Notes under the pieces: generated by a model | Databases searched by the model: none | Seen by the model: only the letters and a program-made list of their open reading frames with translations | Told to the model about the DNA's origin: nothing | Translations under genes and position numbers: made by a program | Part shown: piece after piece, positions 1 to 43,752 of the stretch | How the letters are laid out: each line of letters starts with the position of its first letter | Position numbering within the stretch: the first letter of the stretch is position 1 | Origin: Crambe crambe | Taxonomy: Eukaryota; Porifera; Demospongiae; Poecilosclerida; Crambeidae | Length of the DNA: 64,000 nt | Direction: 5' to 3' | Assembly: GCA_963924555.1 (NCBI GenBank) | Contig: OZ004594.1 | Location: 4,619,563 to 4,683,562, forward strand

Positions 1-185
1 GGCTGCCAACTAGTCCTATGTATGGATGTGGTGTACTCTGGCTCCTCTGAGTGGTGACCTGTTTACAGACTTGTGGGTCTATTAGCTGCTGCTTGTTGTG
101 ATTTTTGGTAACCCTTCCTGGCATTATGTGTCATCTTCTACACTGACATCAGAGTGCGTGATCTGGCTCCTGCATGAGGGTAATC
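1..185 (+). repeat. Dispersed locus repeat, copy A
   Basis: This is the first of about seven copies of a 180-370 bp sequence found only between members of the secreted-protein cluster. It is recognised by the words CAACTAGTCCTAT, GACCTGTTTACAGACTTGTG and CATGAGGGTAA. Other copies lie near 1597-1800 (-), 5530-5720 (-), 16200-16570 (+), 17480-17810 (+), 20575-20750 (+) and 24000-24245 (+). No coding potential or clear terminal repeats are visible. It may be an old non-autonomous element or flanking DNA carried along by duplication of the gene units. Confidence 0.6.
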
Positions 186-199
186 TTTAATTCCCAATA

Positions 200-572
200 T
201 CTGGGAATTGCGGTGCTGACACATCGACATAACCCTCGTCAGCTGCAGTTGGAGAAGATGACAGAGTTAGTGGAGGTAGCTATTCATGTGCAGGTAGTCA
301 TGGACCATTTTCTCAAGTTCCATCTTTTGTCGGAAGTGATTTCTATTTGTGATACTGGTTCTAGAAGTGGTTGGCAACACGGATTCTTTAACAATGACAC
401 CCTGTGAGATGGGGCTGAATTCAGGAGGCCTAGCACCTGCTGTTTTTTCAACAGTCCTCCGTGGTTCTTGAAGCAGCTCTCCTCCATCACTAGTGATGAC
501 CTTGAGTTGAGGGTGTGCAGAGATGAGCCTAGAAGTAATGAAGATGTTGGCCTAAAGAGTGTGGAACTATAA
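200..572 (+). pseudogene. C-terminal relic of the fibrinogen-like secreted family
   Basis: Translated pieces match the C-terminal half of the whole family members: the CDTGSR segment, the CCFFNSPPWF-like segment, DLELRV and the tail EDVGLKSVEL. The reading frame is disrupted, and the 5' half (signal peptide, stalk, first part of the domain) is absent. The nearest whole relatives are the copies at 18723 and 4058. This is a decayed fragment and could serve as sequence donor for conversion. Confidence 0.8.
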
Positions 573-4057: not shown

Positions 4058-5140
4058 CTATTGTACATAAAGTTTCACACTCTTTAGGCCAACATCTTCA
4101 TTACTTCTTGGCTCATTTCTGCACACTCTCAACTCAAGGTCATCACTAGTGTTAGAGGAGAGCTGCTTCATGAACCACGGAGGACTGTTGAAGGAACAGC
4201 AGGTGCTTGACCCCCCACATCCAGCCCCATCCCACAGGGGGTCATCTCCATAAAATGTTCCAATCCGATAATGACCTCTAGAACCAGTGTCACAAAAATA
4301 GCTACTTCCTATAAAAGATGGAAGTTGAGTAGCAGATCCACCTCTATGTGTGCAAGGACAAATTGAGTGTCTAATTATACCAGCTTCATCAAGTGCAGCT
4401 GTTAATGTCCAGATGTGATGTCGTGGATTATGTCCATGTGTTAGACTAGCTCCATCAACATAAGCACCATTTATACCATTTGAGCTCACATGATTGGAGA
4501 ATGCATCTGTGCTTGCTTCCTGGTACCCTATGACCTTCCCACACACCTTTTGGTAAGGGATACCATGGATGTCAAACATAGTAGAAGCACATCCTGCACC
4601 ATCACTAGGGATGCCACACCTCCTCCTGATGTTGGTGAATAGTTGTAGTCCACTTGGACAGGATTGTGAGGTGTTGTCTGCATTGAAGTCTACCACTCTC
4701 ATCCATGGTCCACCCACTCCTTTGCAGCTGGTCATTTTACAGTACACACGCACAGTGGGACCAGTGGTCAGTTTGATGTAGTAATAGCCTGAGGGGCTGT
4801 TGGGAACACAGTCTTTGATCTCTCTACAGGACTTGGCAGGGTTGCATTCATACTGTCCAATATTGCTGGGTAGTAGACACTGCACCAAAGGGGACAACTG
4901 TTGCTTTATCTTCTGAGTGACTTCAGAAACAATCTCTTGCTTCATGACTTCCTTGTCAATTTGGCAACTATCATCTATTCTTGCAATTATCTTTTTCTCA
5001 ACTCCTTTGAAGCTCTCCTGTATGGAGTCATTCAGTTGTGAGATGCCTTGTCTCCAGGTATGTGGAAATTCGTTATTATTTTGTCCCTTGGCTACCTGGC
5101 TGGTAACCATGAACATCAATAGTAAAATCTGATGGAGCAT
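4058..5140 (-). CDS. Secreted coiled-coil protein with fibrinogen-like start and basal-metazoan C-terminal domain
   Basis: Single-exon gene of 360 residues. I take the ATG at 5140 rather than one nine codons upstream because MLHQILLLMFMVTSQ aligns with the starts of the copies at 32801 and 36353 and begins a clean signal peptide ending near residue 18. Residues 25-88 form a short predicted coiled-coil stalk containing SQLNDSIQES. From about residue 93 comes the family domain. It opens with NIGQYECNPAKSCREIKD and a fibrinogen-like YYYIK-TGPTVRVYCKM segment. It then has WMRVVDFNAD, RRRCGMPSDGAGC-like and VCGKVIGYQ segments, a variable part, the DDPLWDGAGCG and STCCSFNSPPWF motifs, and ends EDVGLKSVKLYVQ. 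There is no transmembrane helix, so it is probably secreted. Whether it acts in recognition, aggregation or matrix is unknown. Confidence 0.9.
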   Translation of the reverse strand: MLHQILLLMFMVTSQVAKGQNNNEFPHTWRQGISQLNDSIQESFKGVEKKIIARIDDSCQIDKEVMKQEIVSEVTQKIKQQLSPLVQCLLPSNIGQYECNPAKSCREIKDCVPNSPSGYYYIKLTTGPTVRVYCKMTSCKGVGGPWMRVVDFNADNTSQSCPSGLQLFTNIRRRCGIPSDGAGCASTMFDIHGIPYQKVCGKVIGYQEASTDAFSNHVSSNGINGAYVDGASLTHGHNPRHHIWTLTAALDEAGIIRHSICPCTHRGGSATQLPSFIGSSYFCDTGSRGHYRIGTFYGDDPLWDGAGCGGSSTCCSFNSPPWFMKQLSSNTSDDLELRVCRNEPRSNEDVGLKSVKLYVQ

Positions 5141-8475: not shown

Positions 8476-9144
8476 TTTTTTGATAATTGCGTGGTTAATT
8501 TCCGTAAAGGGTGGAGCTATAGGGCTATAAGTAACTTCCTGCCGGTACTCTAGCCACAGCATTTTATAAAAGCTGTTGTCCCCACTGGAGGTCAACCTGC
8601 TTCGGGTGAACAGATCTGACCGCTCAGAAGGATCTCTACATGTCATAATAGTTAGAGCTGAAAAGCCATTTATTGTAATTATCATGAGCCTTGTGATAGC
8701 CAGGAGTGGAAAAATGATGTAGAATTTGAATTAAGCATAATGGCAAATTCTTGAAGGTAGGGGAGAAAAGAAAGAGGAACCATACTAACAGTCCTCTAAG
8801 TGGCCCAATATGTTCATGCTTAGGTGGCATGGCATACAGCTACCATGACAACGGAGAGTTATGATATTAAATTTTATTATCCCAATCAAAATGCAGTTTC
8901 TCATAATTATTGGGTTTACATCTGTACAGGAAGTGGTAGATTTTTGATATTTACATGTAATTAACTTCCTAATTTTATGGATATACACATAATGTAGTAT
9001 TGTATTGTATAATTTTTTATAGCCCGTTGCCATGGTAACGGACCGATTTACATGGATTTATAAATGTGATACAGTGCATGTAATTGTAGCCTGGGGTGGT
9101 GTTTACAGGGAAAAGTTAGATATAGATTCTGCAGTAGCCACTAA

Positions 9145-9655
9145 TGCTGTAGGAGAGCTGCTTCATGAACCATGGAGGACTGTTGAAGGAACAGCAGGTG
9201 CTAGATCCCCCACCATTCTATAGGGGGTCATCACCATAAAATCTTCTGTTCTTAAAAAGATGCCCACCCACACCTTTGCAGCTGGTCATTTTACAGTACA
9301 CACGTATGATGGGTCCATTGTTCTTTTTTATAATAGCCTGAGGTGCTGTTGGGGTTGTGGTTCTTAATGTCTTACATGATTGGGCAGGATTGCATTCAAA
9401 ATACTGCAATATTGGAGATAGAAGTTTAGTTAAGCATACACTTTTGAGACTATATATATCTCTCTTTTTTTCCTTCACTATCTGTTGCTGATGACTCTCT
9501 TGAATGGAGTCATTTAACTCATACTAGAAAGGTGTGAGAACATCTTATTCTCCAAATTCTGCTCCAGAAGGTGTAGCTAAGCATTCTCCTGTTGAATTAG
9601 AAATGCATGTTTCGTTATCCTTAACAGCTCGAAAATGCTGCATCTTCGCTACTTT
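9145..9655 (-). pseudogene. Decayed copy of the secreted family (stalk and start of domain)
   Basis: The minus strand has stalk words equivalent to LNDSIQES and ETCISNS (9480-9640). These are followed by the ECNPAQSCK segment and the NNGPIIRVYCKMTSCKGVGG segment (9240-9410). It then jumps directly to the FYGDDPL and FNSPPWFMKQ coding region (9150-9235), so the middle of the domain is deleted. The same internal deletion and the same KNNGPII type occur in the mirror relic at 29259-29990, showing that the loss predates the inverted duplication. Confidence 0.75.
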
Positions 9656-9689
9656 GATCTGCACATGTATTCTTAACTTGCTATACAGG

Positions 9690-9765
9690 AGAGCTATGTA
9701 GCTATTGAACCACAGAGGACTGTTGAAGGAACAGCAGATGCTAGACCTCCCACACTCAGTTACTG
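9690..9765 (-). pseudogene. Short C-terminal relic of the secreted family
   Basis: About 75 bp match the complement of the STCCSFNSPPWFMKQLSS coding segment, with small indels. Nothing else of the gene is present beside it. Confidence 0.55.
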
Positions 9766-10502: not shown

Positions 10503-11720
10503 CTATTGCACATAAAGTTCCACACTCTTTAGACCAACATCTTCATCTCCTCGTTCTTGATCTCGGCACACCCTCAATTCAAGGTCATCACTAGTGCTGG
10601 AGGAGAGCTGCTTCATGAACCATGGAGGACTGTTGAAGGAACAGCAGGTGCTAGCTCTCCCACATCCAGCCCCATCCCACAGGGGATCATCTCCATGCAA
10701 CACTGGATTTGGCCAACCATTTCTAACGCCAGTGTCACAAAAATAGCTATTTCCAACGAAAGATGGAATATTCACAGCACTATTTCTCTCTCTGTGCGTA
10801 CAAGGACAAACTATAGCAAGATGTCCATAATTGAAATCTTCACTAAATGCAGCTGCAAATGTCCAGATGTGATGACGTGGGTTATGTCCATGTGTGAGAC
10901 TAGATCCATCAACATAAGCACCTTCAATGGAGTATTGTTGGACGAAATTTGAGAATGCATCTGTGCTCATTTTCTGGTATCCTATCACCTTCCCACACAC
11001 TTTTTGGTAAGGGATGCCATGGACATCTAACATAGTAGAAGCACATCCTGCACCGTCACTAGGCATGCCACACCTCCTCCTGATGTTGGTGAATAGTTGT
11101 AGTCCACTTGGACAGGAGTGTGAGGTGTTGTCTGCATTGAAGTCCACCACTCTCATCCATGGTCCATCCACTCCTTTGCAGCTGGTCATTCTACAGTACA
11201 CACGCACAGTGGGACCAGTGGTGGGTTTAATGTAGTAATAGCCTGAAGTGCTGTTGGGAGCAGCCTCCTTAATTTCATGACATGACTTGGCTGGGTAGCA
11301 TTCACACTTTCCAATGTTGCTAAGTGCAGTGCATTGCCTTGGGAGAGATAAATGTTCCTTTATATTTTTTGAGACTTCAGATACTATCTCTTTAGTCACA
11401 TTCTCTTTATCGACATAATATTGAGAAGACACATTTTTCACTATGTCATTCAGGCCAAATAGTAGAACTTGGGAAGTTATATCAGAGACTATTTTTTGTT
11501 TTGCTTCAGTTAGACTTGCTATCATACCTTTAATAACTTGCTCCATAGCCTGTTCAACTCTCTGTTCCATGAGGTCAGCCAGCTGCTGAAGACTCTGCTG
11601 AGTGGAGTTGTCTAATTCGTGAATGTCGTTAGTCCAGGAGAAAACAGATCCATTGTCACTCTGTCCATTTGCTGCATTGCAGGTCACTACCAATACTAAA
11701 TACAGCAGCAAAAGATGCAT
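10503..11720 (-). CDS. Secreted coiled-coil/fibrinogen-like family protein, 405 residues
   Basis: Intronless, with ATG at 11720. Residues 1-19 (MHLLLLYLVLVVTCNAANG) are a signal peptide. Residues 30-130 are a heptad-rich stalk with ELDNSTQQSLQQLADLMEQ. The domain starts near residue 135 (NIGKCECYPAKSC), with one more Cys than siblings. The middle segment is of the KPTTGPTV type. The C-terminal half is of the second type: AAAFSEDFNYGHL, CPCTHRERNSAV and CDTGVRNGWPN instead of the DEAG and GSR versions. It ends EDVGLKSVELYVQ. Its closest C-terminal relative is the broken plus-strand gene at 21058. The upstream region has a TATTTTATAG box about 50-65 bp before the ATG. Probably secreted; ligand unknown. 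Confidence 0.9.
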   Translation of the reverse strand: MHLLLLYLVLVVTCNAANGQSDNGSVFSWTNDIHELDNSTQQSLQQLADLMEQRVEQAMEQVIKGMIASLTEAKQKIVSDITSQVLLFGLNDIVKNVSSQYYVDKENVTKEIVSEVSKNIKEHLSLPRQCTALSNIGKCECYPAKSCHEIKEAAPNSTSGYYYIKPTTGPTVRVYCRMTSCKGVDGPWMRVVDFNADNTSHSCPSGLQLFTNIRRRCGMPSDGAGCASTMLDVHGIPYQKVCGKVIGYQKMSTDAFSNFVQQYSIEGAYVDGSSLTHGHNPRHHIWTFAAAFSEDFNYGHLAIVCPCTHRERNSAVNIPSFVGNSYFCDTGVRNGWPNPVLHGDDPLWDGAGCGRASTCCSFNSPPWFMKQLSSSTSDDLELRVCRDQERGDEDVGLKSVELYVQ

Positions 11721-12747
11721 CTTCTTTGTGAGTAGCTATAAATTTCTCAGTCTTGAGCAATTCTTGTGAGCTATAAAATATAATTATTAATTACCGCGTG
11801 AATATATTTACAGCAGCACTATCAAAATGACCTTTAACCAATAATTTTTTTTTGTAGTGAACTCTTAGTGAAACCAGAAGATCTTGAGATAATTAACCTT
11901 TGAACCATAGCAATTAGTCCTGATTGAGCACGGAGGAGAGTATTACACTCTCAAATGTCCTGCAAGACATATAACTTTGTGGTGTGTGAATTGTAATACA
12001 GTGTAACAAAATCATTGGCTACTTTCCAAATCAGCCAATTTAACTTTTACTGCTTGCATGGACATCGCTCTATAGCTATGAACTGACAAGGTGATTTTCC
12101 AATTGTCTGTTCCAGCAGTCCAATCCAGCTCTTCTGTTTTTGACTATTAGCTAATCCACATGTGATTGTTCTTTTGTAATGATTGATAGTCATAATTATG
12201 CTCAGCATGTAGATATTGTTTGAAATTCCAGCTAATGGAAAGCCTTCATTAACCATAATGGAATGTAAACAGAGTGTATGCAGCATCCACATAAATCAAT
12301 GTTTGAATGCAAAGCATTTTGCATTTTGAGATTGCTGGAAGAGAGCTACATACTTCATGCTCAACTTACCTACTAGCTATAATGTGACTTATCTACTAGC
12401 TAATAATTATGACTTATCTACTAGCTAATGTGATATTTTGAGCCAAGATGGTCAGGTAGAATGTAATTATAATCAGTTAGGAAGCTGATAGCTACCTACT
12501 ATTAAGTTGTAGTAGCATGGAGTGGTTAATGCAGCCGCAGGGTCAAGGTTAAAGTGGCACTACACAATAATGTGCAGCTGCAATAATGACCACTAGGACA
12601 GTTCTGCTGTATAGCTTTCGTTTTGTTTGTGGAAATTATCAATACAATCATACAATGGAAATTTATGAATGGGTTAGAGGAGCCAAATCACTTCTCCACT
12701 AAGAAAACTTCAAAGAATAAAATTTAATATATATAAAGTTTCAAAGA
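11721..12747. other. Intergenic region
   Basis: The first 100 bp hold the putative promoter of the gene at 10503-11720. Positions 11815-11880 (words TATCAAAATGACCTTTAACC) recur at about 30565-30610 and, inverted, at 14990-15050. Positions 12640-12747 are the 3' flank of the next gene. No further coding sequence is recognisable. Confidence 0.4.
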
Positions 12748-14184
12748 TTATTGCACATAAAGTTCCACGCTCTTTAGACCAACATCTTCATCTCCTCGTG
12801 TTTGATCTCTGCATACCCTCAACTCAAGGTCATCAATAGTGCTGGAGGAGAGCTGCTTCATGAACCATGGTGGACTGTTGAAGGAACAGCAGGTGCTAAA
12901 CCCCCCACATCCAGCCCCATCCCACAGGGGGTCATCTCCATAAAATTTTCCATACGAAAATCGACTTCTGGAACCAGTGTCACAAAAATAGCTACTTCCT
13001 ATAAAAGATGGAAGTTGAGTAGCAGATCCACCTCTATGTGTGCAAGGACAAATTGAGCGTCTATTCGTACCAGCTTCATCAAGTGCAGCTATTAATGTCC
13101 AGATGTGATGTCGTGGGTTACTTCCATGTGTTAGACTAGCTCCATCAACATAAGCACCATTTATACCATTTGAGCTCACAAATGCATCTGTACTTCCTTC
13201 CTGGTATCCTATGACCTTCCCACACACCTTTTGGTAAGGGATACCGTGGATATCAAACATAGTAGAAGCACATCCTCCACCATCACTAGGCATGCCACAC
13301 CTCCTCCTGATGTTGGTGAATAGTTGTAGTCCACTTGGACAGGAGTGTAAGGTGTTGTCTGCATTGAAGTCCACCACTCTCATCCATGGTCCATCCACTC
13401 CTTTGCAGCTGGTCATTTTACAGTACACACGTATGATGGGTCCATTATTCTTTTTTATATAGTAGTAGCCTGAGGTGCTGTTGGGGTTGTGGTTCTTGAT
13501 GTCCTTACATGATTGGGCAGGATTGCATTCAAAACTTCCAATATTACCAAGAGAGTAATGCTGCAACATTGGAGATAGAAGTTTCTTCATTGTAGTGATT
13601 TCAGACACGATATCTTGTTTGATCATCTCTCCATCAATATGGCAGCTGTTGGATGGAGCGAGTAGTTGTAGTTGACGAGACACTTGTGAAATCATATCTC
13701 TCTTGATCTGTTTCATCTGATTAGTAAGCTGCTGATAACTCTCTTGAATAGAGTCATTTAACTGGGCAATAATATCTTCTTTGATGCCAGCAAGTCGTGA
13801 GAACATTTTCTTTTTCTGATTAGCAAGCTGTTGATAATTCTCTTGAATGGAGTCATTTAACTCGGAGATATCAGTGGAGACTTCCAATATGATATCTTCC
13901 TTCACACCAGCAATTTGTGAGAGCATTATATTCTTCATTTCCTCTGTTTTCTGCTCCAGAAGGTGTAAGCGTTCTTCTGTCGAATTATTCAGCTGAGAAA
14001 TACATGTTTCGTTATCCTTCACAGTTCGGAAGTTCTTATCAATTTTAAGGAGTATCTTTTCCATTGCTCTCATTTTCTGTTCCAAGTGCTGGAGACTCAC
14101 TTGAATGGAGTCATCCCTCTCATCTTGTCCCATAGTTGTATGGGAGATCACCAATACAATCAAAAGTACATGTAGATAGAACAT
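12748..14184 (-). CDS. Secreted coiled-coil/fibrinogen-like family protein, 478 residues
   Basis: This is the longest member and a good reference for the family. Signal peptide 1-19 (MFYLHVLLIVLVISHTTMG). Stalk 25-205, built from repeated units: ISQLNNSTEERLHLLEQ, SELNDSIQENYQQLANQ and AQLNDSIQESYQQLTNQ, with the intervening AGVKEDII/AGIKEDII. The domain runs from about 214 to 478: FECNPAQSC 218-226, YYYIKKNNGPIIRVYCKM 240-257, PWMRVVDFNAD 266-276, RRRCGMPSDGGGC 293-305, VCGKVIGYQ 320-328, SLTHG 350-354, PSFIGSSYFCDTG 392-404, DDPLWDGAGCG 417-427, STCCSFNSPPWF 430-441. Middle type KKNNGPII is joined to C-terminal type DEAG, a combination not shared by its N-terminal twin at 18723. It is intronless. 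The ATG at 14184 is the only one giving a signal peptide. Confidence 0.92.
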   Translation of the reverse strand: MFYLHVLLIVLVISHTTMGQDERDDSIQVSLQHLEQKMRAMEKILLKIDKNFRTVKDNETCISQLNNSTEERLHLLEQKTEEMKNIMLSQIAGVKEDIILEVSTDISELNDSIQENYQQLANQKKKMFSRLAGIKEDIIAQLNDSIQESYQQLTNQMKQIKRDMISQVSRQLQLLAPSNSCHIDGEMIKQDIVSEITTMKKLLSPMLQHYSLGNIGSFECNPAQSCKDIKNHNPNSTSGYYYIKKNNGPIIRVYCKMTSCKGVDGPWMRVVDFNADNTLHSCPSGLQLFTNIRRRCGMPSDGGGCASTMFDIHGIPYQKVCGKVIGYQEGSTDAFVSSNGINGAYVDGASLTHGSNPRHHIWTLIAALDEAGTNRRSICPCTHRGGSATQLPSFIGSSYFCDTGSRSRFSYGKFYGDDPLWDGAGCGGFSTCCSFNSPPWFMKQLSSSTIDDLELRVCRDQTRGDEDVGLKSVELYVQ

Positions 14185-15425
14185 AATTATTTTGCTCTAG
14201 CTACTCTAATTCTGAAACACACTGACAAAGCATTAGATGCCAATCCCTCAGTCTGTTATTATTGTGGTTAGCTAGATAGAATTCTCCAGATGTACAGTCA
14301 AGTTCCACTTATTGTGGTAACCCACAAGGTTATTCTATTGTAGACCAAGGTGAATTATCTTGGCAACATGAGCAGCAATTGTACACATTCTATTTGCTGC
14401 TCAGTGAACTTTACAAATTTCAAATGTACAATCATGCATGCATATTGGTAGCTACATTATTTTATGGTCCTTAATTTCACAAGTCAAGCAGTCACTATCC
14501 TTTGAAGTGCCATAATAGCACTAAATGATAGAGAGATTTGTATTTCACGAATATTAGCGAAGAGTGTTTAAAATACAATATCTGGATGAAAAAGGCATGA
14601 AAAGAGGTACGTAAGTTGTGGCCAGTAGCTTCAAAGTGTCGTCCAAAACTTGATGGATGGACATTTTTAAATAAAGAAAGTGGGCCCAGAGTATACAAAT
14701 AGCTGAATGGAAAGTCTGCACTATGGACTATTATTAATTTCCAGATTCCAAAAAGCAAGTGATATAATCACCACTACTCTAGTCCTGTAAGTATAGCATG
14801 CATCCTTCTCATACCACTTATTTTATTGGACCCTCTATGAGCAAACAGTTAAAATAATGTCTCCTTTTGCATAGCTCCTGCAGGTGTATATTATTAAGCC
14901 CTTGGGCTAGGCCCTAACATGCATTAATATGCTTGTGTACCTATCTCTGGTTATGGTTCAAAGATGCACACAGATAAGGTCCTCCCTAGTAGAGTTCACT
15001 CTACCAATAAATAATTACTGGTTAAAGGTCATTTTGATAGCACTGCTGTGTTTAAAATAGAAATATTTTTTATAACAAGATCCAATATATAACTCTAAAA
15101 TCTTCTTCCCCCTATACATTCAGTTTGGGGAAATTTAAGTTGAAACTTGATGGATGGACATGGATGGACCAAGTCTGGACATGGATGGACCAAGTGGATG
15201 GGATGGATGGACCAAGTCTTCATGTTATGATTTATTTTTATGTATGTACAAAGTTTAATTTTTGTTGTTTAACATTTAAATGGGCATAGTGATACAGCAA
15301 TGTATAATTGTCAGGTCTACATAATGAGGGTGGTGATTGAATCAAAGGTGAATTGTATTAGTAACTCGAAGTGCATGCTTCAGTAATTATTATAGCTATA
15401 CATGTTGAAGATTTCATTCAGTGGA
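14185..15425. other. Intergenic region between minus-strand and plus-strand halves of the cluster
   Basis: Positions 14220-14345 are the upstream region of the gene at 12748-14184 and resemble, reversed, the promoters at 18590-18670 and 25050-25140 (shared words AAGTGGAACT and GTACATCTGGAGA). Positions 15135-15225 hold a short tandem repeat of GATGGACCAAGT. No gene is seen. Confidence 0.45.
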
Positions 15426-15427
15426 GT

Positions 15428-15815
15428 ATAAAACTGCAAATTGTAAGACTGTCAGTGTCTTAGAGATTTCAGTAACACCTTGTCCATCTGCTATCATATA
15501 GATGAAAGGGAACATACGTAAATGACAGTATCAAAGTCTTCATTTTACGTAGCAGTTATCTTGGTAGCTAGTTCCCAAAAATTATGCTCTAAGAATCCTT
15601 AATCTAAAAAGGGAGTTCCATAGGCTAGCTAGCTCAGCTGTTAATAATAATATTATTATTATCAATGTGTTCTTTAGTGACATCATCAGATAAGGAGGTT
15701 AAGGGTCATGATGATAGTGCTTTCTGATCAGTGTCCTCACACTTCATTCCCATGATAGTCTATGTAGACATGTACGTAAAGTATAGCTGACTATAATGCT
15801 ACCTTTATTCTCCAA
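15428..15815 (-). pseudogene. Orphan, chimeric promoter and first codons of the secreted family
   Basis: Positions 15460-15815 are a direct duplicate of 3200-3560, the start and upstream region of the broken minus-strand gene, including its AAGTCTTCAT start region and the 5' flank. The adjoining 15428-15455 match 5155-5180, the upstream flank of a different gene (4058-5140). The coding body is missing. This is therefore a junction of two gene starts left by deletion or recombination. Confidence 0.65.
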
Positions 15816-15929
15816 GACCTCCAGGAAAAGGGGGGTTTGGGTAACACTTTGTCCATCTGTAGAAATAAATAATATTTTGGTACATAAATGGAACTCTCTG
15901 GAGTGGAGATCGAGTTTTGACCACAGAAA

Positions 15930-16200
15930 TGATAGAAGGGATTCTAATAAAGGCTACACTATCAGACTTAATTGGCAAACACTTCATGCTTCAGAATTTG
16001 AGTAGCTAGAGCAAAATATGTTACCCCTATATCTACTTTTAGTTGTACTGGTGACTTCCCATTATGGGACAAGATGAGAGGGATAACTTCATTCAAGTGA
16101 GTCTCCAGCACTTCGAACAGAAAATGAGAAGATATAGCTACTCCTTAAAATTGATACAAATTTTTGAGCTGCTAAGGATAACAAAAACGTGTATTTGGAT
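15930..16200 (+). pseudogene. Orphan promoter and 5' end of a MGQDERD-type family member
   Basis: A promoter word AGGGATTCTAATAAAGGCTA (15938-15957) matches those before 18723 and 25191. It is followed by coding matches to the signal peptide and MGQDERD-FIQVSLQHFEQKM stalk start (16020-16125). The frame is lost soon after and the sequence runs into a copy of the dispersed locus repeat (16200-16570). Confidence 0.65.
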
Positions 16201-16639
16201 GTCTGTTTTGTTGACAGCTCCTGAGGGTGACCTGATGGTATACCTGTTTATGTTTACAGACTTGTGGGTCTATTAGCTGCTGCTCGTTGTGGCTTTTGGT
16301 AACCCTTCACAACATGTGTCACTTTTGACAAGAGAGTGTGTGATCAAAAATTGATTCGTGGCTCTGCATGAGGGTAACCCTTCCCACTATCTGTTAATTA
16401 TGCTACCTGCCAACTAGTCCTATACATAGATGCAGTAAACACCATCTGTTCCTACCGATTAAAGATAAACCTGCATGGTTATGGGTACACCATAAGTTCT
16501 GTTGACAGAATAAAGCCTCCTGTGTGTAATCTGGTGGTGTATCTGTTTACCGGCTGGAAAGTTGAGTAATTAGCAACTGTAACAACTTAGTGCATATACC
16601 TCAATGATTGGCTGATTACACTCAGAAACAACGTACGTA

Positions 16640-16690
16640 GAACTCTCTTAATAGAAACAAACAAACAAACAAACAAACAAACAAAGCTAA
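16640..16690. repeat. AAAC microsatellite
   Basis: A run of about eight AAAC units. It lies between the dispersed repeat and the next relic. Confidence 0.85.
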
Positions 16691-16749
16691 GTAGCAGTAG
16701 GCTGATTTTCACATGCATTCAAGTATTATTAATGTACATAAACAGTCTT

Positions 16750-17107
16750 CACACACATGGACATAACCCACATCATCACATCTGGACATTTGCAGCTGCA
16801 CTTAGTGAAGATTTCAATAATGGAAGTCTTGATTATGTTTGTCCTTGTACAATCTTTCGTTGGAAATAGCTATTTTTGCGACACTGGCGTTAGAAATGGT
16901 TGGCCAGCAGTGTTGTATGGAGACAACCCCCTGTGAGATGGGGCTTGATGTGAGAGAGCTAGCACCTGCTGTTCTTTCAACAGTCCTCCTTGGTTCATGA
17001 AGCAGCTCTCCTCCAGCACTAGTGATGACCTTGAGTTGAGGGTGTGTTGAGATCAAGAATGAGGAGATGAAGATGTTGGTCCAAAGAGTGTGGAACTTTA
17101 TGTGCAA
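16750..17107 (+). pseudogene. C-terminal relic of the FNYG type
   Basis: The plus strand matches the second C-terminal type: HIWTFAAA, EDFNNG, SYFCDTGVRNGWP, then the STCCSFNSPPWFMKQLSS segment and the tail ending ELYVQ. The frame is disturbed. The 3' end and the 200 bp beyond it, including a poly-G run, are duplicated after the mini-gene at 25191-25505. The mini-gene's 3' half is most like this relic. Confidence 0.75.
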
Positions 17108-17220
17108 TAATTATGTAATTTCAATAACTGTGTACTCTTTCAATTCCCTTAGCTGAGAGCACCTTTGAACCATGTAGTTTCTGATATGCATGCACTGTAG
17201 TTAAACTTAGGGATCATAGG

Positions 17221-17221
17221 T

Positions 17222-17252
<31 letters not shown>
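17221..17252. repeat. Poly-G tract of about 30 bases
   Basis: An uninterrupted run of G followed by AATAGCCCCCCTACC. The homologous site at 25620-25637 has only two short G runs, so the tract has expanded. Such tracts are also error-prone in sequencing. Confidence 0.85.
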
Positions 17253-17479
17253 ATAGCCCCCCTACCAAACTGTAAATTAAATCTGATGAAGAAAGCATTC
17301 GGAAACATAAAAATCATTCATGTTTCCACATGGATCCCCAGAAGTTATGGGGATACACTTGCAACCTAAGCAGGAGGCATCAGCTGTTTACACATGGAAG
17401 GTCTGTGAGTGTCCAATGGCCACAAAGGTGAGAATAATTGCTACTCATTTTATTGACCTTCAGTAATGGGATGATTAAT

Positions 17480-18722
17480 TTTACCACAAATATGTATGTT
17501 TTACAGAATTGTGGATCTATTAGCAGCTTTGGTAACCCTTCACAGCATTATATGAGTCACTTTTATAAACTTCTAACAAGAGAGTGTGTGATAAAAAATA
17601 AAATTGATTTGTGGCTCTGCATGAGGGTAACCCTTCCCACTATCTGTTAATATATAGAAACCTGCCAACTGGTCCTATACGTACATAGATGTCCTACTGT
17701 AGGATTAAGGATTCCTGAGGGTAACCTAGATGGTTTATGGGTACACCATAAGTTCTGTTGACTGAATAAAGCCTCCGTGTAATCTGATGGTGTACCTGTT
17801 TATTGACTGAAAATCAACCTAATGCTGCTTAAATTTGCTTGTTTGTTTTTCTATTAAGAGAGAGTATCGTTGCTGTCTTCCTTCCTGTCTTTGTAAGTAT
17901 TGCTCTGGATGACACAGGCATGGAAATAAATCCTTATTTATGACAGCAGAATCCTCTTCAACGAGATATCTAACTCCCTCTTGTTGAGCTTATGCAAAAG
18001 TGATACCAGGCAACACCCGCTGAATGTATCTAGCTATGATGCTCGACTGACACTGTTAAGTGACAAGCATAAAAACACTTTTTGACTGCAGGGATATTCT
18101 AAATCCAGCTATCATCATAAGATGGGAGTCACATCAAAAATGACTCATAATTTTCACATGATTAATTTCACATTTGTGGGTAATGCATGTTGTGAGTTTA
18201 CTATAGCTAAGGCATATGCAGCTAGGGCTCCCAAACTTCAATTAAGGGAGAGAGATGACATTGTAGGTAGGCGTAGCTACTTAGCTAAGCACCCAACCAA
18301 CAGTAATTCTATCAGGTGTGGATGCATTCTTAGTATTAATTTTGAACAGGATAGATACTGTTAATCCAACATTTAAAGAAGTTGTGGAATCTGTAGCTAC
18401 TTCAGATGCTGCTGTTGTTTCTGGCCACTTGCCATCCAATGAAACTTCCTTGATCACAACTCACATATGTAGCTAATTATTTCTAGATAATTATGGGAAC
18501 CAATGTACCACTTTGATTTTGTACATTAAGTCATAGTGTCAGTCAGAAAAAATTATTCCCTTTGTCCTGTGGTACATAATTTACCACTTATAAGTGGAAC
18601 TAGTTTTGACAGTACATCTACATAACCACAGGAATGACAGAAGGGATTCTAATAAAAGCTACACTCTTTGGGTAACACTAGTCAATGATCATTACAGTTA
18701 GAGTATACGTAGCTAGAGCATT
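17480..18722 (+). repeat. Duplicated 5' flank of the 18723 gene
   Basis: About 1.2 kb upstream of the gene is colinear with 24000-25190, the upstream region of the mini-gene. Shared landmarks are the dispersed repeat (CTCTGCATGAGGGTAACCC), CCAGCTATCATCATAAGATG, and the promoter with ACAGAAGGGATTCTAATAAA. This shows that gene and flank were duplicated as one genomic unit. An 80-codon open frame at 18122-18364 inside it is not conserved in the other copy and is not called. Confidence 0.75.
18642..18672 (+). promoter_or_regulatory. TATA-like core promoter shared by MGQDERD-type genes
   Basis: The word ACAGAAGGGATTCTAATAAA followed by AGCTACACTC lies 50-80 bp before the ATG at 18723. The same module stands before the mini-gene at about 25115-25145 and the orphan 5' end at about 15935. 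A looser version (GATTTGAATAAAAGCAGCAC) precedes 21058. Conservation between copies and the AATAAAAG box suggest the core promoter; this is inference from position and sequence only. Confidence 0.55.
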
Positions 18723-20156
18723 ATGATAATTATGCTTCATCTATATCTACTTTTGTTTGTATTGGTGATCTCCCATACAACTATGGGACAAGATGAGAGG
18801 GACGACTCCATTCAAGAGAGTCTCCAGCACTTGGAACAGAAAATAAGAGCAATGGAGAAGATGCTCCTTAAAATTGATAAGAATTTTCAACCTGTTAAGA
18901 ATAACGAAACATGCATATCTCAACTAAATAATTCAACAGAAGAATACTTCCACCTTCTGGAGCAGAAAGCAAAGGAAATAGAGAAGAAGATGCTCTCACA
19001 ATTTGCTAGTGTAGTGCTAAGGATAAATGCCTCTGCTCAGGAGAGTTATCAGCAGCTTGCTGACCAGAAAAAGTATATGGCTAGTATAAAAGAAGAGATC
19101 ATATTGGAAGTCTTGACTGATATCTCCAAGTTAAATGAGTCAGTTCAGGAGAGTTCCCAACAGCTTGCAGACCAGATGGGATACAGAATGGAACAAGCAC
19201 GGACTGCAATAGTAAATTCTCAAATGTTATTACATGCTCCATCCAATAGTAGCCACATTGAGAAAGAAACCATGAAAGAAGAAATCATATCCGAAGTCAC
19301 TGAAAAGATGAGGGAGCACTTCTCTCTCTTAATGAAGTGCCTCCTACCCAGCAACATTGGACAGTTCGAATGTAATCCTGCCAAGTCTTGTCGAGAGATA
19401 AGTAATAGTGCCAACAGCCCCTCAGGCTATTACTATATTAAACCCACCACTGGTCCCACTGTGCGTGTGTACTGTAAAATGACCAGCTGCAAAGGAGTGA
19501 GTGGAGGATGGATGAGAGTGGTGGACTTCAATGCAGACAACACCTCACAATCCTGTCCAAGTGGACTACGCCAATTCACCAACATCAGGAGGAGGTGTGG
19601 CATGCCTAGTGATGGTGCAGGATGTGCTTCTACTATGTTTGATGTCCATGGTATCCCTTACCAAAAGGTGTGTGGGAAGGTCATAGGGTACCAGGAAAGA
19701 AGTACAGATGCATTCTCCAATCATGTGAGCTCAAATGGTATAAATGGTGCTTATGTTGATGGAGCTAGTCTAACACATGGAAGTAACCCACGACATCACA
19801 TCTGGACATTAATAGCTGCACTTGATGAAGCTGGTACAAATAGACGCTCAATTTGTCCTTGCACACATAGAGGTGGATCTGCTGCTCAACTTCCGTCTTT
19901 TATAGGAAGTAGCTATTTTTGTGACACTGGTTCTAGACGTCATTATCAGATTGGAACATTTTATGGAGATGACCCCCTGTGGGATGGGACTGGATGTGGG
20001 GGGTCAAGCACCTGCTGTTCCTTCAACAGTCCTCCATGGTTCATGAAGCAGCTCTCCTCCAGCACTAGTGATGACCTTGAGTTGAGGGTGTGCAGAGATG
20101 AGCCCAGAAGTAATGAAGATGTTGGCCTAAAGAGTGTGGAACTTTATGTACAATAG
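18723..20156 (+). CDS. Secreted coiled-coil/fibrinogen-like family protein, 477 residues
   Basis: Intronless. ATG at 18723 starts MIIMLHLYLLLFVLVISHTTMG; the second ATG three codons later would also serve. Stalk about 25-205, with units ISQLNNSTEEYFHLLEQ, QESYQQLADQ and SKLNESVQESSQQLADQ. The domain begins near residue 212 (NIGQFECNPAKSCREI). The middle segment is of the KPTTGPTV type. The C-terminal segment is of the DEAG type (ALDEAGTNRRSICPC, CDTGSRRHYQIG). The N-terminal 100 residues are nearly the same as in the gene at 12748, but the middle module differs. That is one of the signs of module exchange. It ends EDVGLKSVELYVQ. Predicted secreted; function unknown. Confidence 0.92.
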   Translation: MIIMLHLYLLLFVLVISHTTMGQDERDDSIQESLQHLEQKIRAMEKMLLKIDKNFQPVKNNETCISQLNNSTEEYFHLLEQKAKEIEKKMLSQFASVVLRINASAQESYQQLADQKKYMASIKEEIILEVLTDISKLNESVQESSQQLADQMGYRMEQARTAIVNSQMLLHAPSNSSHIEKETMKEEIISEVTEKMREHFSLLMKCLLPSNIGQFECNPAKSCREISNSANSPSGYYYIKPTTGPTVRVYCKMTSCKGVSGGWMRVVDFNADNTSQSCPSGLRQFTNIRRRCGMPSDGAGCASTMFDVHGIPYQKVCGKVIGYQERSTDAFSNHVSSNGINGAYVDGASLTHGSNPRHHIWTLIAALDEAGTNRRSICPCTHRGGSAAQLPSFIGSSYFCDTGSRRHYQIGTFYGDDPLWDGTGCGGSSTCCSFNSPPWFMKQLSSSTSDDLELRVCRDEPRSNEDVGLKSVELYVQ

Positions 20157-20900
20157 AACATTCAATTAATAGGATTGGTTCAATTATTCTGATTAAATTA
20201 TTCTCAGATTCATAATTTGTGTACTGCGCTATGTATCAAAATTATACACTCACCCTAATATAGTTCGCAATGATTTATTGAATTAGAAAAAAATTATTGT
20301 ATAGCTGCTACATTGCTACAAAAAAAGAGAAAATTGGTAGGTTTATGGAAACTTTTGAACCTCTTCTTTTCATAATGGCAATCTTCTTTCTACGTATTTG
20401 TTCTGATTTCTCCTCAGACATTCTTGTGTTGACTTGGGGTTTAAGTGAGGAAGCTATAGTATGTGTACCAGCCACTTCATATATCATATACGTAGTTTGA
20501 GCAATTCACGATTTCATTATCTATTTATGCTAGGTGATCAGAGTGAGTGTTTTAGCTTGTTATAGGTTATATAATGGTTCCATGAGGGTTACCTGCCTAT
20601 GTATGGATGTGGTGTACTCCATCTATTCTATTGAGGCTCCTCTGAGTGATGACCTGTTTACAGACTCGTGGGTCTATTATGTAGCTGCCGCTGGTTGTGA
20701 TTTTTGGTACCCCTTCCTGGCATTATGTGTCACCTTCTACATGATGTGAGTTGGAGGAGGGAAGCTATGTATAGTATGTGTACTGGCCACTTCATATAGT
20801 TTGAGCATGCAATTAGCTATGTATCTCCAAAGTTCATGCAGTCATGTAGTAAATAGTACTGGTACGTATATGTATTATATGATCTGCCTTGGCCCACATA
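20105..20900 (+). repeat. Inverted duplicate of 1500-2300
   Basis: Gene tail, 3' flank, an antisense stalk fragment (about 20370-20430) and a dispersed-repeat copy (20575-20750) are present, mirrored at 1500-2300. The duplicated unit therefore starts within a gene and extends 750 bp past its stop codon. Confidence 0.65.
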
Positions 20901-21057
20901 AAAATAGAGTGACTCTCAAAATTTTTGTGGGATGATTGACCATGATAAAAGGAATCAATTTTGACTGCACACATCTAACAGAAAGATTTGAATAAAAGCA
21001 GCACTCTGCAGTTAAAAAGTAATACACTAGCTAGCTAGATCAGTCTAAGAGTGAAAT

Positions 21058-22403
21058 ATGTGCTATCTAAGACTACTTTTGATTATTTTGGTAACCTGCC
21101 ATACAGCTGCTATGGGACAAGGTGAGAGGGAGTTTTCTTGGAGACAAGATATCTCCCAACTGAATGACTCCACTCAAAAGAGTCTCAATCACTTGGAACA
21201 AAAAATGAGAGCAGTGGAGAAAATACTTCGTTCCAAACAGAACAGCTCAACACAAGAATGTCTGCAACTGTTAGAGGAGAAATCAGAGGAAATAGAAAGG
21301 AAGATTGCCATTATGAAAGAAGAGGTCATATTAGAAGTTTCCAGTGATGTCTCTCAACTAAATGTTTTCTATTCGACAACTGCAGAACACACTGTTTATA
21401 ATTGATGAGGAAGTTCATACTGATAAGGATATTGGTATTAAACTCAATGACTCTGTATATGAATGGTTACAACTGCTGGAGAAGAAGATAGAGGACGCAG
21501 AAAGGAAGATGCTCTCAAGATTTGCTGAAATGAAAGAAGAGATTAAAATAGAATTTATCACTCAGAAGGAAATTCTATCTCCACTGTTGCAGCATTACTC
21601 TCTTAGTAATATTGGAAGTTTTGAATGCAATCCTACCCAATCATGTAAGGACATTAAGAACCACAACCCCAACAGCACCTCAGGCTACTACTATATAAAA
21701 AAGAACAATGGACCCATCATACGTGTGTACTGTAAAATGACCAGCTGCAAAGGAGTGAGTGGACCATGGATGAGAGTGGTGGACTTCAATGCAGACAACA
21801 CCTCACACTCCTGTCCAAGTGGATTGCAACTATTCACCAACATCAGGAGGAGGTGTGGCATACCTAGTGATGGTGCAGGATGTGCTTCTACTATGTTTGA
21901 CGTCCATGGCATCCCTTACCAAAATGTGTGTGGGAAGGTGATAGGATACCAGAAAAAGACCACAGATGCATTCAAAAAATTTGTCCAATACCACTCCATT
22001 AAAGGTGCTTATGTTGATGGATCTAGTCTCACACATGGACATAGCCCACGTCATCACATCTGGACATTTGCAGCTGCATTTAGTGAAGATTTCAATTATG
22101 GAAATCTCGATAATGTTTGTCCTTGTACGCACAGAGAGAGAAATAGTGCTGCAAGCATTCCATCTTTTGTTGGAAATAGCTATTTTTGTGACACTGGTGT
22201 TAGAAATGGTTGGCCAAATGCAGTATTGTATGGAGAAGACCTGTGGGAGGTCTAGCACCTGCTGTTGCTTCAACAATCCTTCATGGTTCATGAAGCAGCT
22301 CTCCTCTAGCACTAGTGATGACCTTGAGTTGAGGGTATGCCGAGATCAAGAACAAGGATATGAAGATGTTGGTCTAAAGAGTGTGGAACTTTATGTGCAA
22401 TAG
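21058..22403 (+). pseudogene. Broken full-length copy of the secreted family (FNYG type)
   Basis: An ATG at 21058 opens MCYLRLLLIILVTCHTAAMG, a signal peptide, then the stalk (SWRQDISQLNDSTQKSLNHLEQ). The frame shifts near 21362-21400, so the stalk continues in another frame to the domain (NIGSFECNPTQSC). The domain is of the KKNNGPII middle type with C-terminal type AAAFSEDFNYGNL and CDTGVRNGWPN. A loss of about 20 bases around 22235-22245 removes most of the DDPLWDGAGCG motif and shifts the frame again before the tail. So there are two frame breaks. No splice signals explain them, and whole siblings lack introns. Promoter box AATAAAAG lies at 20991-20998. Confidence 0.85.
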
Positions 22404-22735: not shown

Positions 22736-23004
22736 TAACCTCTATTAGGAGACAATCCACTTCTTCAAAGGAAATTCTTGCTTGCTCAATAGGTGTAATA
22801 AACCAGCTGTGAACCATATGCCCAGTAATTAACATTCTGTGTGCATGCCACTATGATATAAAGCCACATGATTGTGTAAAACCTACATATGATTCAATTC
22901 CTCTTCAAATGAATTAGAAAACCTAATGGATAATCAGGCTCTCCTTTTCTCTTCATGATTTAAAAATATTATCATATAATCCAAAGTTTATGACTGCATG
23001 TAAA

Positions 23005-23470
23005 AATCTTGGCTGACATCTTCAATACTTCTGACCTCATCTCTGCACACCCTTAACTCTCAACTAGTGGTTAAGCCGGAGAGCTGCTTCATGAACCTGA
23101 ACCAGAAAGAACAGCAGGTGTTTGACCCCCACACTCAGTCCCATCCCATGCATCACCAAAGAATCTGTGTTGCAATTCTAACTATCTAATTTTGTGACTC
23201 AGATTATAAATGTTCTTAGCAATGATTTTTAGACTGTATCTCTTTATTTGAAACAAGAATCCTATAGCTGATCACAACTATCCAATTCATTAATGAACCA
23301 TAATTCTATTACACATAAAGTTCCGCACTCTTTAGGCCAACATCTTCATTACTTTTAGCTGCATACCCTCAACTCAAGATCATCACTAGTGCTGGAGGAG
23401 AACTGCTTCATGAATGACGGAGGACCGTTGAAGGAACAGCAGGTGCTAGACCCCCATGCATGGTCCCAAG
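23005..23470 (-). pseudogene. Two C-terminal relics in tandem
   Basis: 23005-23175 and 23305-23470 both match the complement of the region from STCCSFNSPPWF to EDVGLKSVELYVQ. The second also keeps the last codons (CACATAAAGTTC, the complement of ELYVQ). They are separated by 130 bp of AT-rich DNA. The hAT-like element at 23585 lies just beyond. Confidence 0.6.
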
Positions 23471-25190: not shown

Positions 25191-25505
25191 ATGATAATGA
25201 TGCTTCATCTATATCTTTTGTTTGTATTGGTGACCTCCCATATAACTATGGGACAAGATGAGAGGGATAATGCTGGCTTTGCGACGCTGGCGTTAAAATG
25301 GTTGGCCAAGACATGTGTTGTATGGAATGACCCTCTGTGGGATGGGGCTAGATGTGGGAGGTCTAGCACCTGCTGTTCTTTCAACAGCCCTCCATGGTTC
25401 ATGAAGCAGCTCTCCTCTAGCACTAGTGATGACCTTGAGTTGAGGGTGTGCCGAGATCAAGAACGAATAGATGAAGATGTTAATGTGGAACTTTATGTGC
25501 AATAA
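25191..25505 (+). CDS. Internally deleted mini-gene of the secreted family, 104 residues
   Basis: An intact open frame joins an N-terminus of the MGQDERD type (MIMMLHLYLLFVLVTSHITMGQDERDN) to the last 75 residues of the domain (NDPLWDGARCGRSSTCC, FNSPPWFMKQLSSSTSDD, ending ELYVQ). The whole stalk and about three quarters of the domain are gone. The joint reads DNAGFATLALKWLAKTCVV and is not family-like in this frame; it comes from the CDTGVRNGWP-coding DNA read in another frame. Promoter and signal peptide are intact, so a short secreted Cys-rich peptide could be made. It may equally be a relic that happens to stay open. Confidence 0.55.
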   Translation: MIMMLHLYLLFVLVTSHITMGQDERDNAGFATLALKWLAKTCVVWNDPLWDGARCGRSSTCCSFNSPPWFMKQLSSSTSDDLELRVCRDQERIDEDVNVELYVQ

Positions 25506-29258: not shown

Positions 29259-29990
29259 TTGTTTCATTTTCATCTACTTTTGAGTGTATTGGTGATCTCC
29301 CATACAACTATTGGAGGGATGATTCCATTCAAGAGAATCTCCAGCACTTGGGACAAAAAATCAGATAGGAACATTCAAACTGTTAAGGATAACGAAACAT
29401 GCATTTCTAATTCAATAGAAGAACGCTTACACCTTTTGGAGTAGAATTTAGAGAATAAGATGCTCTTACAGCTTGCTGGGGAGAAAGAGATTTCTACTGA
29501 TACCTCTAAGTTAAATGACTCTATTGAAGAGAGCCATCAGCAGCTTACTGATCAGACAAAACAGATAGTGAAAAAAGAAAAGAGAGATATAGTCTCACAA
29601 GTATCTGCTCAACGACTATGGTGTCTGAATTCTCTATTATAATGACTATCTCCACTGTAGCATTAGCTAGTAATATAGGACGCAATCCTGCCCAATCATG
29701 TAAGGATATTAACCACAACCCCAACAGCACCTCTGGCTACTACTATATAAAAAAGGACAATGGACCCATCACGTGTGTATACTGTAAAATGACCAGTTGC
29801 AAAGGAGTGGGTGGGTATCTTTTTAAGAAACGGAAGATTTTATGGTGATGACCCCCTGTAAAATGTGGGGCTGGATGTGGGGGGGTCTAACACCTGCTGT
29901 TCCTTCAACAGTCCTCCATGGTTCATGAATCAGCTCTCCTCCAGCACTAGTGATGACCTTGAGTTGAGGATATGGGGCCCGTGATATTAG
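29259..29990 (+). pseudogene. Decayed copy of the secreted family, mirror of 9145-9655
   Basis: The signal peptide region (FHLLLSVLVISHTTIG), stalk words (TVKDNETCIS, EERLHLLE, LNDSIEESHQQLTDQ), the domain start (NPAQSCKDI), and YYYIKKDNGPI-CVYCKMTSCKG are followed directly by YGDDPL and FNSPPWF-coding DNA. The middle of the domain is missing. There are several frame breaks. It is the right-arm partner of the relic at 9145-9655. Confidence 0.8.
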
Positions 29991-43640: not shown

Positions 43641-43752
43641 AAAAAACCTGCTGTTCCCAGGCAGTCACCCATGTAAGTACTGGGCAGGCTTGACACTGAT
43701 TAACTCGGTGATCAGATGAGAACTGGTGTATTCATCATGGTATGGTTGTAGG
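43641..43752 (-). pseudogene. 5S rRNA-derived sequence with TATA box and T-run
   Basis: On the minus strand, CTACAACCATACC, ACACCAGTTCTCATCTGATC, CCGAGTTAATCAGTGTCAAG and ATGGGTGACTGCCTGGGAAC follow the order and spacing of metazoan 5S rRNA, including the A-box and C-box regions. The terminal helix I is lost at the 3' end: the sequence stops at GCAGG followed by six T, a Pol III-type terminator. TATAAAA lies about 23-30 bases upstream. Compared with the 5S sequence I recall, paired changes in helices II and IV/V seem to keep pairing. It cannot be a normal 5S rRNA. It is either a relic or a 5S-derived small RNA. Confidence 0.7.

What the first reader, a model, noticed from the sequence alone, without database searches (positions are those of the whole stretch)
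10503..22403. All four combinations of two sequence modules in four neighbouring paralogues: evidence of recombination
The middle module of the domain exists as KKNNGPII or KPTTGPTV. The C-terminal module exists as DEAG/GSR or FNYG/VRNGWP. The copy at 12748 has KKNN+DEAG, 18723 has KPTT+DEAG, 21058 has KKNN+FNYG and 10503 has KPTT+FNYG. By the four-gamete logic this cannot arise on one tree without exchange or parallel change. Stretches between the modules (WMRVVDFNAD to VCGKVIGYQ) are nearly identical in DNA across all copies, as expected under gene conversion. The modules are visible; conversion is inference.
Basis: partly seen in the sequence, partly recalled or inferred. Interest (0 to 1): 0.85.

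Follow-up and report, generated by a model that had tools for sequence, protein, structure and literature searches.

The report
Swapped modules in lectin-like gene cluster
A cluster of closely related, probably secreted recognition-type genes in an animal genome has exchanged pieces between neighbouring copies, keeping a shared middle nearly identical while reshuffling the variable parts, a process known from some invertebrate immune genes and here seen in another family.

Summary
Confirmed. Copies 10503, 12748, 18723 and 21058 carry all four combinations of two modules, and the switch in DNA is almost perfect: of 90 two-against-two sites one breakpoint explains 87 (0 of 20000 shuffles); silent sites agree, 14 of 14. 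Single-tree simulations with segment-specific rates give at most 12 of the 21 conflicting 5' sites (500 runs). Segments reject each other's trees in 12 of 12 comparisons with 13 intact copies, 11 of 12 with 15 copies. Copy 21058 is a clear chimera, but a pseudogene. The cluster spans about 65 kb: 13 intact genes and 16 broken or partial places. The core is homogenised at silent sites within the cluster (0.12 against 0.44-0.48 in the modules beside it; 4-fold sites 0.10 against 0.21-0.25) but not between clusters. Best reading: ectopic gene conversion, with some unequal exchange, in a fibrinogen/intelectin-like recognition family. The process is known (snail FREPs, sea urchin Sp185/333); membership of either is not claimed. 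Conversion versus crossover, function and timing are unproven. An unexplained silent-GC dip marks the variable module.

The parts
10503..11720 (-). copy K: intact ORF, 405 aa, KPTT + FNYG
12748..14184 (-). copy L: intact ORF, 478 aa, KKNN + DEAG, tail of the DQ.R.DED type
18723..20156 (+). copy M: intact ORF, 477 aa, KPTT + DEAG
21058..22403 (+). copy N: pseudogene (split frame near 21362-21405, 20 bases missing near 22241), KKNN + FNYG; front like copy F (C17:4610472), back like copy K
11016..11205 (-). interval holding the switch point in copy K (alignment columns 166-355)
13243..13432 (-). interval holding the switch point in copy L
19463..19652 (+). interval holding the switch point in copy M
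21721..21910 (+). interval holding the switch point in copy N
10691..10986 (-). variable module of copy K (FNYG/VRNGWP)
12936..13213 (-). variable module of copy L (DEAG/GSR)
19682..19968 (+). variable module of copy M (DEAG/GSR)
21940..22235 (+). variable module of copy N (FNYG/VRNGWP)
4058..5140 (-). copy J: intact ORF, 360 aa; inverted near-twin of copy H at C17:4618001-4619086
32801..33820 (+). copy O: intact ORF, 339 aa
36353..37330 (+). copy P: intact ORF, 325 aa
2280..3167 (-). relic I: 5' part like copy G (96.7%), 3' part like copy H (97.2%)
16749..17110 (+). relic with a third FNYG/VRNGWP-type module
9119..9760 (-). relic of the family
22994..23468 (-). relic of the family
25191..25505 (+). 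relic: signal-peptide-like start followed by a C-terminal tail, middle missing
29259..29972 (+). relic of the family
186..569 (+). relic (3' part)

Best explanation
A local array of duplicated single-ORF genes for probably secreted, probably oligomeric fibrinogen/intelectin-like recognition proteins keeps exchanging DNA between its copies, most likely by non-allelic (ectopic) gene conversion in the germ line with some unequal exchange. The common core is passed around often enough to stay nearly identical, also at silent sites. That stretch of identity lets exchanges begin or end inside it, so that the divergent 5' module, the variable module and the tail are recombined into new combinations. 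Selection for different binding surfaces probably keeps the variable modules apart. Shown: mosaic ancestry, the breakpoint zone, lowered silent divergence of the core within the cluster, chimeric and pseudogene copies. Inferred: conversion rather than crossover, germ-line timing, binding function, selection.
For: Four-copy site pattern: 87 of 90 by one breakpoint, 0 of 20000 shuffles; silent sites 14 of 14 in phase, matched by 40 of 20000 shuffles; single-tree simulations with segment-specific rates reach the 21 observed conflicting 5' sites in 0 of 500, maximum 12. AU tests: 11 of 12 cross-comparisons rejected with 15 copies, 12 of 12 with 13 intact copies. Copy N is 88-99% like F from 750 bases upstream to +510, 82-91% to +870, then 62-81% up to about +1320; against K it is 32-44% in most windows before +510, 64-74% to +690, then 84-98% to the stop. 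It is 2.8% from its nearest front match (C) and 7.6% from K over the back, which argues against an assembly chimera. Bounded tracts: A and P identical over 111 columns in the core although the pair differs at 138 of 339 polymorphic sites; M and E 91-98% from +60 to +510, 73-77% over 180 nt, 97-100% in the 3' coding part (a deletion in E lies between the last two). Silent divergence in 13 intact copies: core 0.121 (bootstrap 0.075-0.172), 5' module 0.483, variable 0.443, tail 0.252, while between clusters the core is 0.49-0.77. Among the four named copies the partners K-N, L-M and L-N lie in opposite orientation, where a crossover would invert the DNA between them. Ten C6-type copies also have conflicting segment trees (5'+core data reject the variable tree, p 3e-5; variable data reject the 5'+core tree, p 0.0096).
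Against: One haplotype of one individual: non-reciprocity cannot be seen. The array also grew by segmental duplication (E-F to M-N; an inverted block with C-L and H-J as pairs; read), so some mosaics may be old crossovers later duplicated. Other partners (A-P, E-M, F-N) are in the same orientation. PHI is weaker than its permutation P suggests: single-tree simulations of 15 copies with unequal segment rates give z of -6.75 on average, minimum -10.3 of 25, against -15.1 observed, and the z of -10.1 for 13 intact copies would not stand out from that range. The GENECONV-like permutation (14 of 105 pairs) was not checked against such simulations and may share the weakness. With 4-fold sites only, the core contrast shrinks to 0.097 against 0.20-0.25, and 8 of 78 pairs do not show core below variable. 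In the C9 group the core is not the least diverged part. Core data do not reject the tail tree at 15 copies (p 0.065), and in the C6 set tail data do not reject the variable tree (p 0.074). A paper on snail FREP2 saw no recombination among its sequences (PMC2935394, passages), so the analogy is not uniform. Expression and binding were not testable.
Confidence: 0.8

Rival explanations
1. Unequal crossing-over and duplication of chimeric genes, with no appreciable gene conversion: a few crossovers in the core made hybrids, and the hybrids were then duplicated and inverted.
For: Segmental duplications (E-F and M-N blocks; inverted H-J block with flanks). Copy N has one main switch point and shares only some 70-85 bases of 3' flank with K.
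Against: K-N, L-M and L-N are inverted relative to each other. Bounded tracts (A-P 111 columns; M-E patch) need two exchange points each. The core has low silent divergence across all 13 intact copies, which a few crossovers do not give.
Confidence: 0.15
2. Parallel change or selection for the same residues, with a single gene tree and strong purifying selection on the core.
For: The core is also conserved in protein (pN 0.049).
Against: Silent sites carry the conflict; simulations never reach it (0 of 500); AU rejections; between-cluster silent divergence of the core is 0.49-0.77.
Confidence: 0.02
3. Assembly artefact: collapsed or chimeric contigs in a repetitive array.
Against: Copy N differs by 2.8% and 7.6% from its nearest front and back matches; the 103,562-base stretch has no N runs; the same kind of conflict appears in C6-type copies.
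Confidence: 0.03

Closest known systems
Snail FREPs (Biomphalaria glabrata)
   Same: Fibrinogen-related recognition proteins, large family; a review attributes their diversity mainly to gene conversion and point mutation (PMC12074976, passages read).
   Different: FREPs carry one or two IgSF domains (PMC7588048, start of the abstract in the listing); none was found here. Here the N-terminal part looks like a coiled coil (by eye) and Fibrinogen_C does not match. One FREP2 study saw no recombination (PMC2935394, passages). Somatic diversification is claimed for FREPs (title; PMC13428168, passages); nothing here speaks to that.
Sea urchin Sp185/333 (SpTransformer) genes
   Same: Tight cluster of short immune-type genes; mosaic of elements, genes look like hybrids of one another, recombination or gene conversion proposed (PMC3091723, passages read).
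   Different: Two exons and flanking microsatellites there (same passages). That the protein is unrelated is recalled, not tested.
Placozoan intelectin-like genes
   Same: Clusters of secreted FReD-type genes in an early animal, alignable to vertebrate intelectins only in the N-terminal FReD part (PMC6321704, passages read), as here (intelectin-1 E 2.1e-5 over profile positions 12-74).
   Different: Placozoan ones are about 250 aa and lack coiled coils per those passages; exchange between copies was not in what I read. Sequence relationship to this family not tested.
Duplicated genes under conversion with a divergence peak (theory and opsin example)
   Same: Low divergence in converted parts and high divergence where difference is favoured (PMC3924837, passages read).
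   Different: Here many copies and several modules, with the modules also reshuffled.

Membership tests
Fibrinogen-related domain (FReD) superfamily | Match to Fibrinogen_C (PF00147) | tested here: not met
   No PF00147 match up to E 0.1 in 7 of 7 family proteins; none of the 81 places of the PF00147 search of the own genome coincides with the 93 places listed for this family
Fibrinogen-related domain (FReD) superfamily | N-terminal fibrinogen-like YCDxxxxGGGW subdomain | tested here: met
   NF040941 over its cut-off in 4 of 4 domains tested, 30.7-38.2 bits against 30
Fibrinogen-related domain (FReD) superfamily | Fold | not testable with these tools
Intelectin (X-type lectin) | Sequence similarity over the whole domain | tested here: inconclusive
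   Profile matches intelectin-1 at E 2.1e-5 but only at positions 12-74 of 269; COLFI matches in the same part
FREP (mollusc) | IgSF domain(s) beside the fibrinogen domain | tested here: not met
   No such Pfam match up to E 0.1 in the 7 family ORFs scanned, one of them (21362-22255) partial
Concerted evolution by ectopic gene conversion | Segment trees conflict | tested here: met
Concerted evolution by ectopic gene conversion | Low silent divergence among neighbours, high between clusters, in the converted part | tested here: met
Concerted evolution by ectopic gene conversion | Paralogues within a species closer than orthologues between species | not testable with these tools
   No relative of this genome is held
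Concerted evolution by ectopic gene conversion | Non-reciprocal transfer | not testable with these tools
   One haplotype only

The most novel reading that the evidence does not exclude
The array works as a module-shuffling recognition locus: a homogenised core serves as a fixed homology handle through which intact genes draw variable modules from neighbours and from pseudogene copies, possibly also between chromosomes, in a manner comparable to gene-conversion diversification of antibody genes but in the germ line (or, boldest, in somatic cells) of an early-branching animal. The trough of silent GC over the variable module (0.13 at 4-fold sites against 0.41-0.52 in the other domain segments; lower than core and tail in all five groups looked at) would be the footprint of a different exchange or mutation regime there.
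Probability: 0.08. Interest if true: 0.88.

Novelty: new member of a known kind. Interest (0 to 1): 0.45.

Why it matters
It is a compact, well-resolved case in which the framework of a recognition-type gene is homogenised while its variable parts are kept apart and re-sorted. My eight searches of the paper library (listings seen, passages of seven papers read) showed no description of this family or of such exchange in it; papers outside that library were not searched. If confirmed in populations, it would allow a direct test of whether gene conversion spreads or generates diversity in recognition genes of early animals, and of whether the silent-GC trough marks where conversion is avoided.

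Tried and rejected
PHI and the GENECONV-like permutation were first taken as strong, then demoted after single-tree simulations with unequal segment rates showed that PHI is inflated. Large AICc gains from one-breakpoint fits (up to 568 units) partly reflect rate differences between segments, so I rely on AU tests and the simulations. Synonymous constraint on the core was rejected by the between-cluster comparison. A singleton test for GC-biased conversion gave contradictory directions between segments and clusters and is inconclusive. Interchromosomal exchange of the tail between C17 and C19 is only suggestive: forcing the C17 copies together is not rejected by tail (p 0.076) or variable data (0.213), only by 5' module data (0.032). 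Naming the organism failed: it is unnamed in the tools, the cathepsin check was uninformative, and 'sponge-like' is recall only. Positive selection on the variable module is not shown: pooled pN/pS is 0.56. The mosaic painting is descriptive; for the diverged variable modules its segments are not reliable. The I-J comparison is meaningless because the two stretches overlap, and the N-K match about 1 kb upstream there falls in the neighbouring genes' tails (by coordinates). Rows dropped: pseudogene E from the 15-copy sets; of 25 family ORFs found in other loci five partial ones were left out, and 15 of the remaining 20 were used in its groups.
Full report
What is there. The window lies at C17:4619563-4683562 of an unnamed 143-Mb genome; GPCR, P450 and collagen-propeptide-like domains point to an animal. 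The finding sits in a cluster that extends left of the window: C17:4592220-4656892, about 65 kb. tblastn places merge into 29, of which 13 are intact single-ORF genes (six in the window: 4058, 10503, 12748, 18723, 32801, 36353; seven to the left) and 16 are broken or partial, on both strands. Each intact gene encodes what looks like a signal peptide, a heptad-like stretch of very variable length, and a domain of about 265 residues (signal peptide and coil judged by eye). Similar genes occur elsewhere: 93 matching places with one query and 134 with another (places are pieces and only the best candidates are scored, so these are not gene counts).

What the domain is. Pfam gives no Fibrinogen_C in 7 of 7 family proteins; fibrillar-collagen C-propeptide (COLFI) matches 6 of 7 in the N-terminal part, over its cut-off in 2. 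NCBIfam's fibrinogen-like GGGW domain is over its cut-off in 4 of 4 tested. A profile of six window domains finds intelectin-1 at E 2.1e-5 over positions 12-74 only. The Fibrinogen_C search of the genome lists 81 places, none coinciding with the places listed for this family. I therefore call it fibrinogen/intelectin-like and do not file it as a FReD, intelectin or FREP member. The fold could not be tested.

The modules. Along the domain there are four parts: a 5' module (KKNN or KPTT and variants), a core (from about YCKMTSC to GKVIGYQ), a variable module (DEAG/GSR, FNYG/VRNGWP and others), and a tail (DEPRSNED or DQ.R.DED types). At DNA level 90 sites split them two against two: 23 as 10503+18723 | 12748+21058, 65 as 10503+21058 | 12748+18723, 2 as the third split; the first kind fills columns 46-166 (plus one site at 805), the second starts at column 355. 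One breakpoint explains 87 of 90; the best of 20000 shuffles explained 73. Restricted to codons with the same residue in all four: 4 then 10 sites, 14 of 14 in phase, matched by 40 of 20000 shuffles.

Is one tree enough? No. With 15 copies (13 intact, copy N and relic I; the partial pseudogene E left out) AU tests reject the other segments' trees in 11 of 12 comparisons (p 0.034 or less); the core data do not reject the tail tree (p 0.065). The tree of the whole alignment is rejected by the 5', core and tail data and not by the variable data (p 0.064). With the 13 intact copies 12 of 12 are rejected (largest p 0.037). Thirty-two of 715 quartets of intact copies have cleanly conflicting segments by the rule I set (8 or more sites against 2 or fewer). 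Simulations on one topology with each segment's own branch lengths reach the 21 observed conflicting 5' sites in 0 of 500 (maximum 12). The same simulations show that the PHI permutation test is inflated by rate differences: simulated z averages -6.75 (25 data sets, minimum -10.3), observed -15.1; for the 13 intact copies alone z was -10.1 (not simulated separately), so PHI should not be leaned on there. A GENECONV-like test gives 14 of 105 pairs at global P 0.05 or less, with the same caution.

Anatomy of the exchanges. Copy 21058 is the clearest: it is 88-99% like copy F (C17:4610472) from 750 bases upstream to +510, 82-91% to +870, then 62-81% up to about +1320; against copy 10503 it is 32-44% in most windows up to +510, 64-74% to +690 and 84-98% from there to the stop, and they share some 70-85 bases after it. 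It is a pseudogene (split frame; 20 bases missing). Relic 2280-3167 is G-like in front and H-like behind. Copies A and P, about 63 kb apart, are identical over 111 core columns while differing at 138 of 339 polymorphic sites. Copies M and E are 91-98% alike from +60 to +510, 73-77% over 180 nt, and, past a deletion in E, 97-100% in the 3' coding part. Twins 12748 and C are 91-99% alike through most of the gene, but the last coding window drops to 87% and the tails are of different types; their homology covers about 190 bases upstream and ends at the stop codon. K-N, L-M and L-N lie in opposite orientation; A-P, E-M and F-N in the same.

The core. In the 13 intact copies (78 pairs) silent divergence is 0.483 (5' module), 0.121 (core), 0.443 (variable), 0.252 (tail) (codon-bootstrap ranges 0.365-0.619, 0.075-0.172, 0.382-0.508, 0.182-0.323). 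In 20-codon windows it is 0.07-0.09 in the first part of the core and 0.32 and 0.55 in the windows crossing its 3' edge. Against copies on C19, C14, C9 and C6 the core shows 0.49, 0.57, 0.65 and 0.77, so it is not silent constraint. With 4-fold sites only the values are 0.214, 0.097, 0.247, 0.196, a contrast of about two to two and a half, and 70 of 78 pairs have core below variable. In the C6 group (7 copies) core 0.069 and tail 0.078 are low, 5' module 0.195 and variable 0.278 higher; in the C9 group (5 copies) the 5' module (0.055) is lowest and the core 0.144, which does not fit the simple rule.

Generality. In ten C6-type copies (nine on C6, one on C17) the 5'+core data reject the variable tree (p 3e-5) and the tail tree (0.001), the variable data reject the 5'+core tree (0.0096) and the tail tree (0.031), the tail data reject the 5'+core tree (0.005) and not the variable tree (0.074). 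Two copies are 99% alike in 5'+core and 84% in the variable module, one of them being 88% like two other copies there.

Mechanism. The best account is ectopic gene conversion with some unequal exchange, plus selection that keeps variable modules different; theory predicts low divergence under conversion except where difference is favoured (PMC3924837, passages). Conversion is favoured over crossover alone by the inverted partners, bounded tracts and core homogenisation, but a single haplotype cannot show non-reciprocity. Function is inference: a secreted, probably oligomeric recognition protein. Fibrinogen-domain genes of a sponge respond to microbial patterns (PMC6208332, passages), but that the host here is a sponge is recall, not a result.

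An unexplained feature. GC at 4-fold sites is 0.13 in the variable module against 0.49, 0.41 and 0.52 in 5' module, core and tail (13 copies); sliding windows reach 0.10. The variable module is lower than core and tail in all five groups examined (C17 0.13, C19 0.28, C14 0.17, C6 0.18, C9 0.30). Against a special role: the N-terminal part of the C6 group is as low (0.17), and single 60-codon windows in eight other ORFs have minima of 0.09-0.35, so the consistency across groups is the point, not the depth. The shift is symmetric between A and T in the C17 cluster but not in C9. GC-biased conversion is one possible cause; my singleton test was inconclusive.

Verdict. Observation confirmed and interpretation supported, with the correction that one of the four combinations sits in a pseudogene. 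The process is a known kind; the family and setting are a further case of it.

Noticed in passing
variable modules, e.g. window 12936-13213 and 19682-19968; also C19, C14, C6 and C9 groups: Trough of GC at 4-fold sites over the variable module, lower than core and tail in all five groups examined.
   Followed up: partly
L014, L015 (C19) against the C17 cluster: Both tail types (DQ..DED and DE..NED) occur on C19 too, and C17-C19 tail silent divergence (0.291) is about that within C17 (0.252) while the core is 0.491: possible exchange between chromosomes, not proven.
   Followed up: partly
L029 (C17:6610072) against L027 and L030 (C6): A C17 copy outside the cluster has a variable module 87-88% like those of two C6 copies, while most C6 copies are 74-86% alike there.
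   Followed up: partly
window 25191-25505: Relic ORF in which a signal-peptide-like start runs into a C-terminal tail, the middle being gone.
   Followed up: no
window 43640-43749, minus strand: 5S rRNA match, 52 bits.
   Followed up: no
window 26906-28015, minus strand: Intact rhodopsin-family GPCR ORF inside the cluster, with fragments that look similar nearby at about 25.6-26.4 kb (by eye).
   Followed up: no
window 56461-58047 and 58134-59657: Tandem pair of ORFs, 74-84% alike in the three repeat stretches listed; the first is a cytochrome P450 by Pfam, the second was not scanned.
   Followed up: no
window 41969-42325, minus strand: Cys-rich repeats matching IGFL (29.6 bits) and Carb_bind (29.2 bits), cut-off 25 for both.
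   Followed up: no
window 61626-62409, minus strand: Fragments that look like a pogo/Tigger-type transposase (recalled, not searched).
   Followed up: no
G000 C5 0.99-1.05 Mb, C19 1.23-1.26 Mb, C18 4.73-4.79 Mb, C8 6.40-6.44 Mb: Separate dense clusters of Fibrinogen_C matches, several with stops inside.
   Followed up: no
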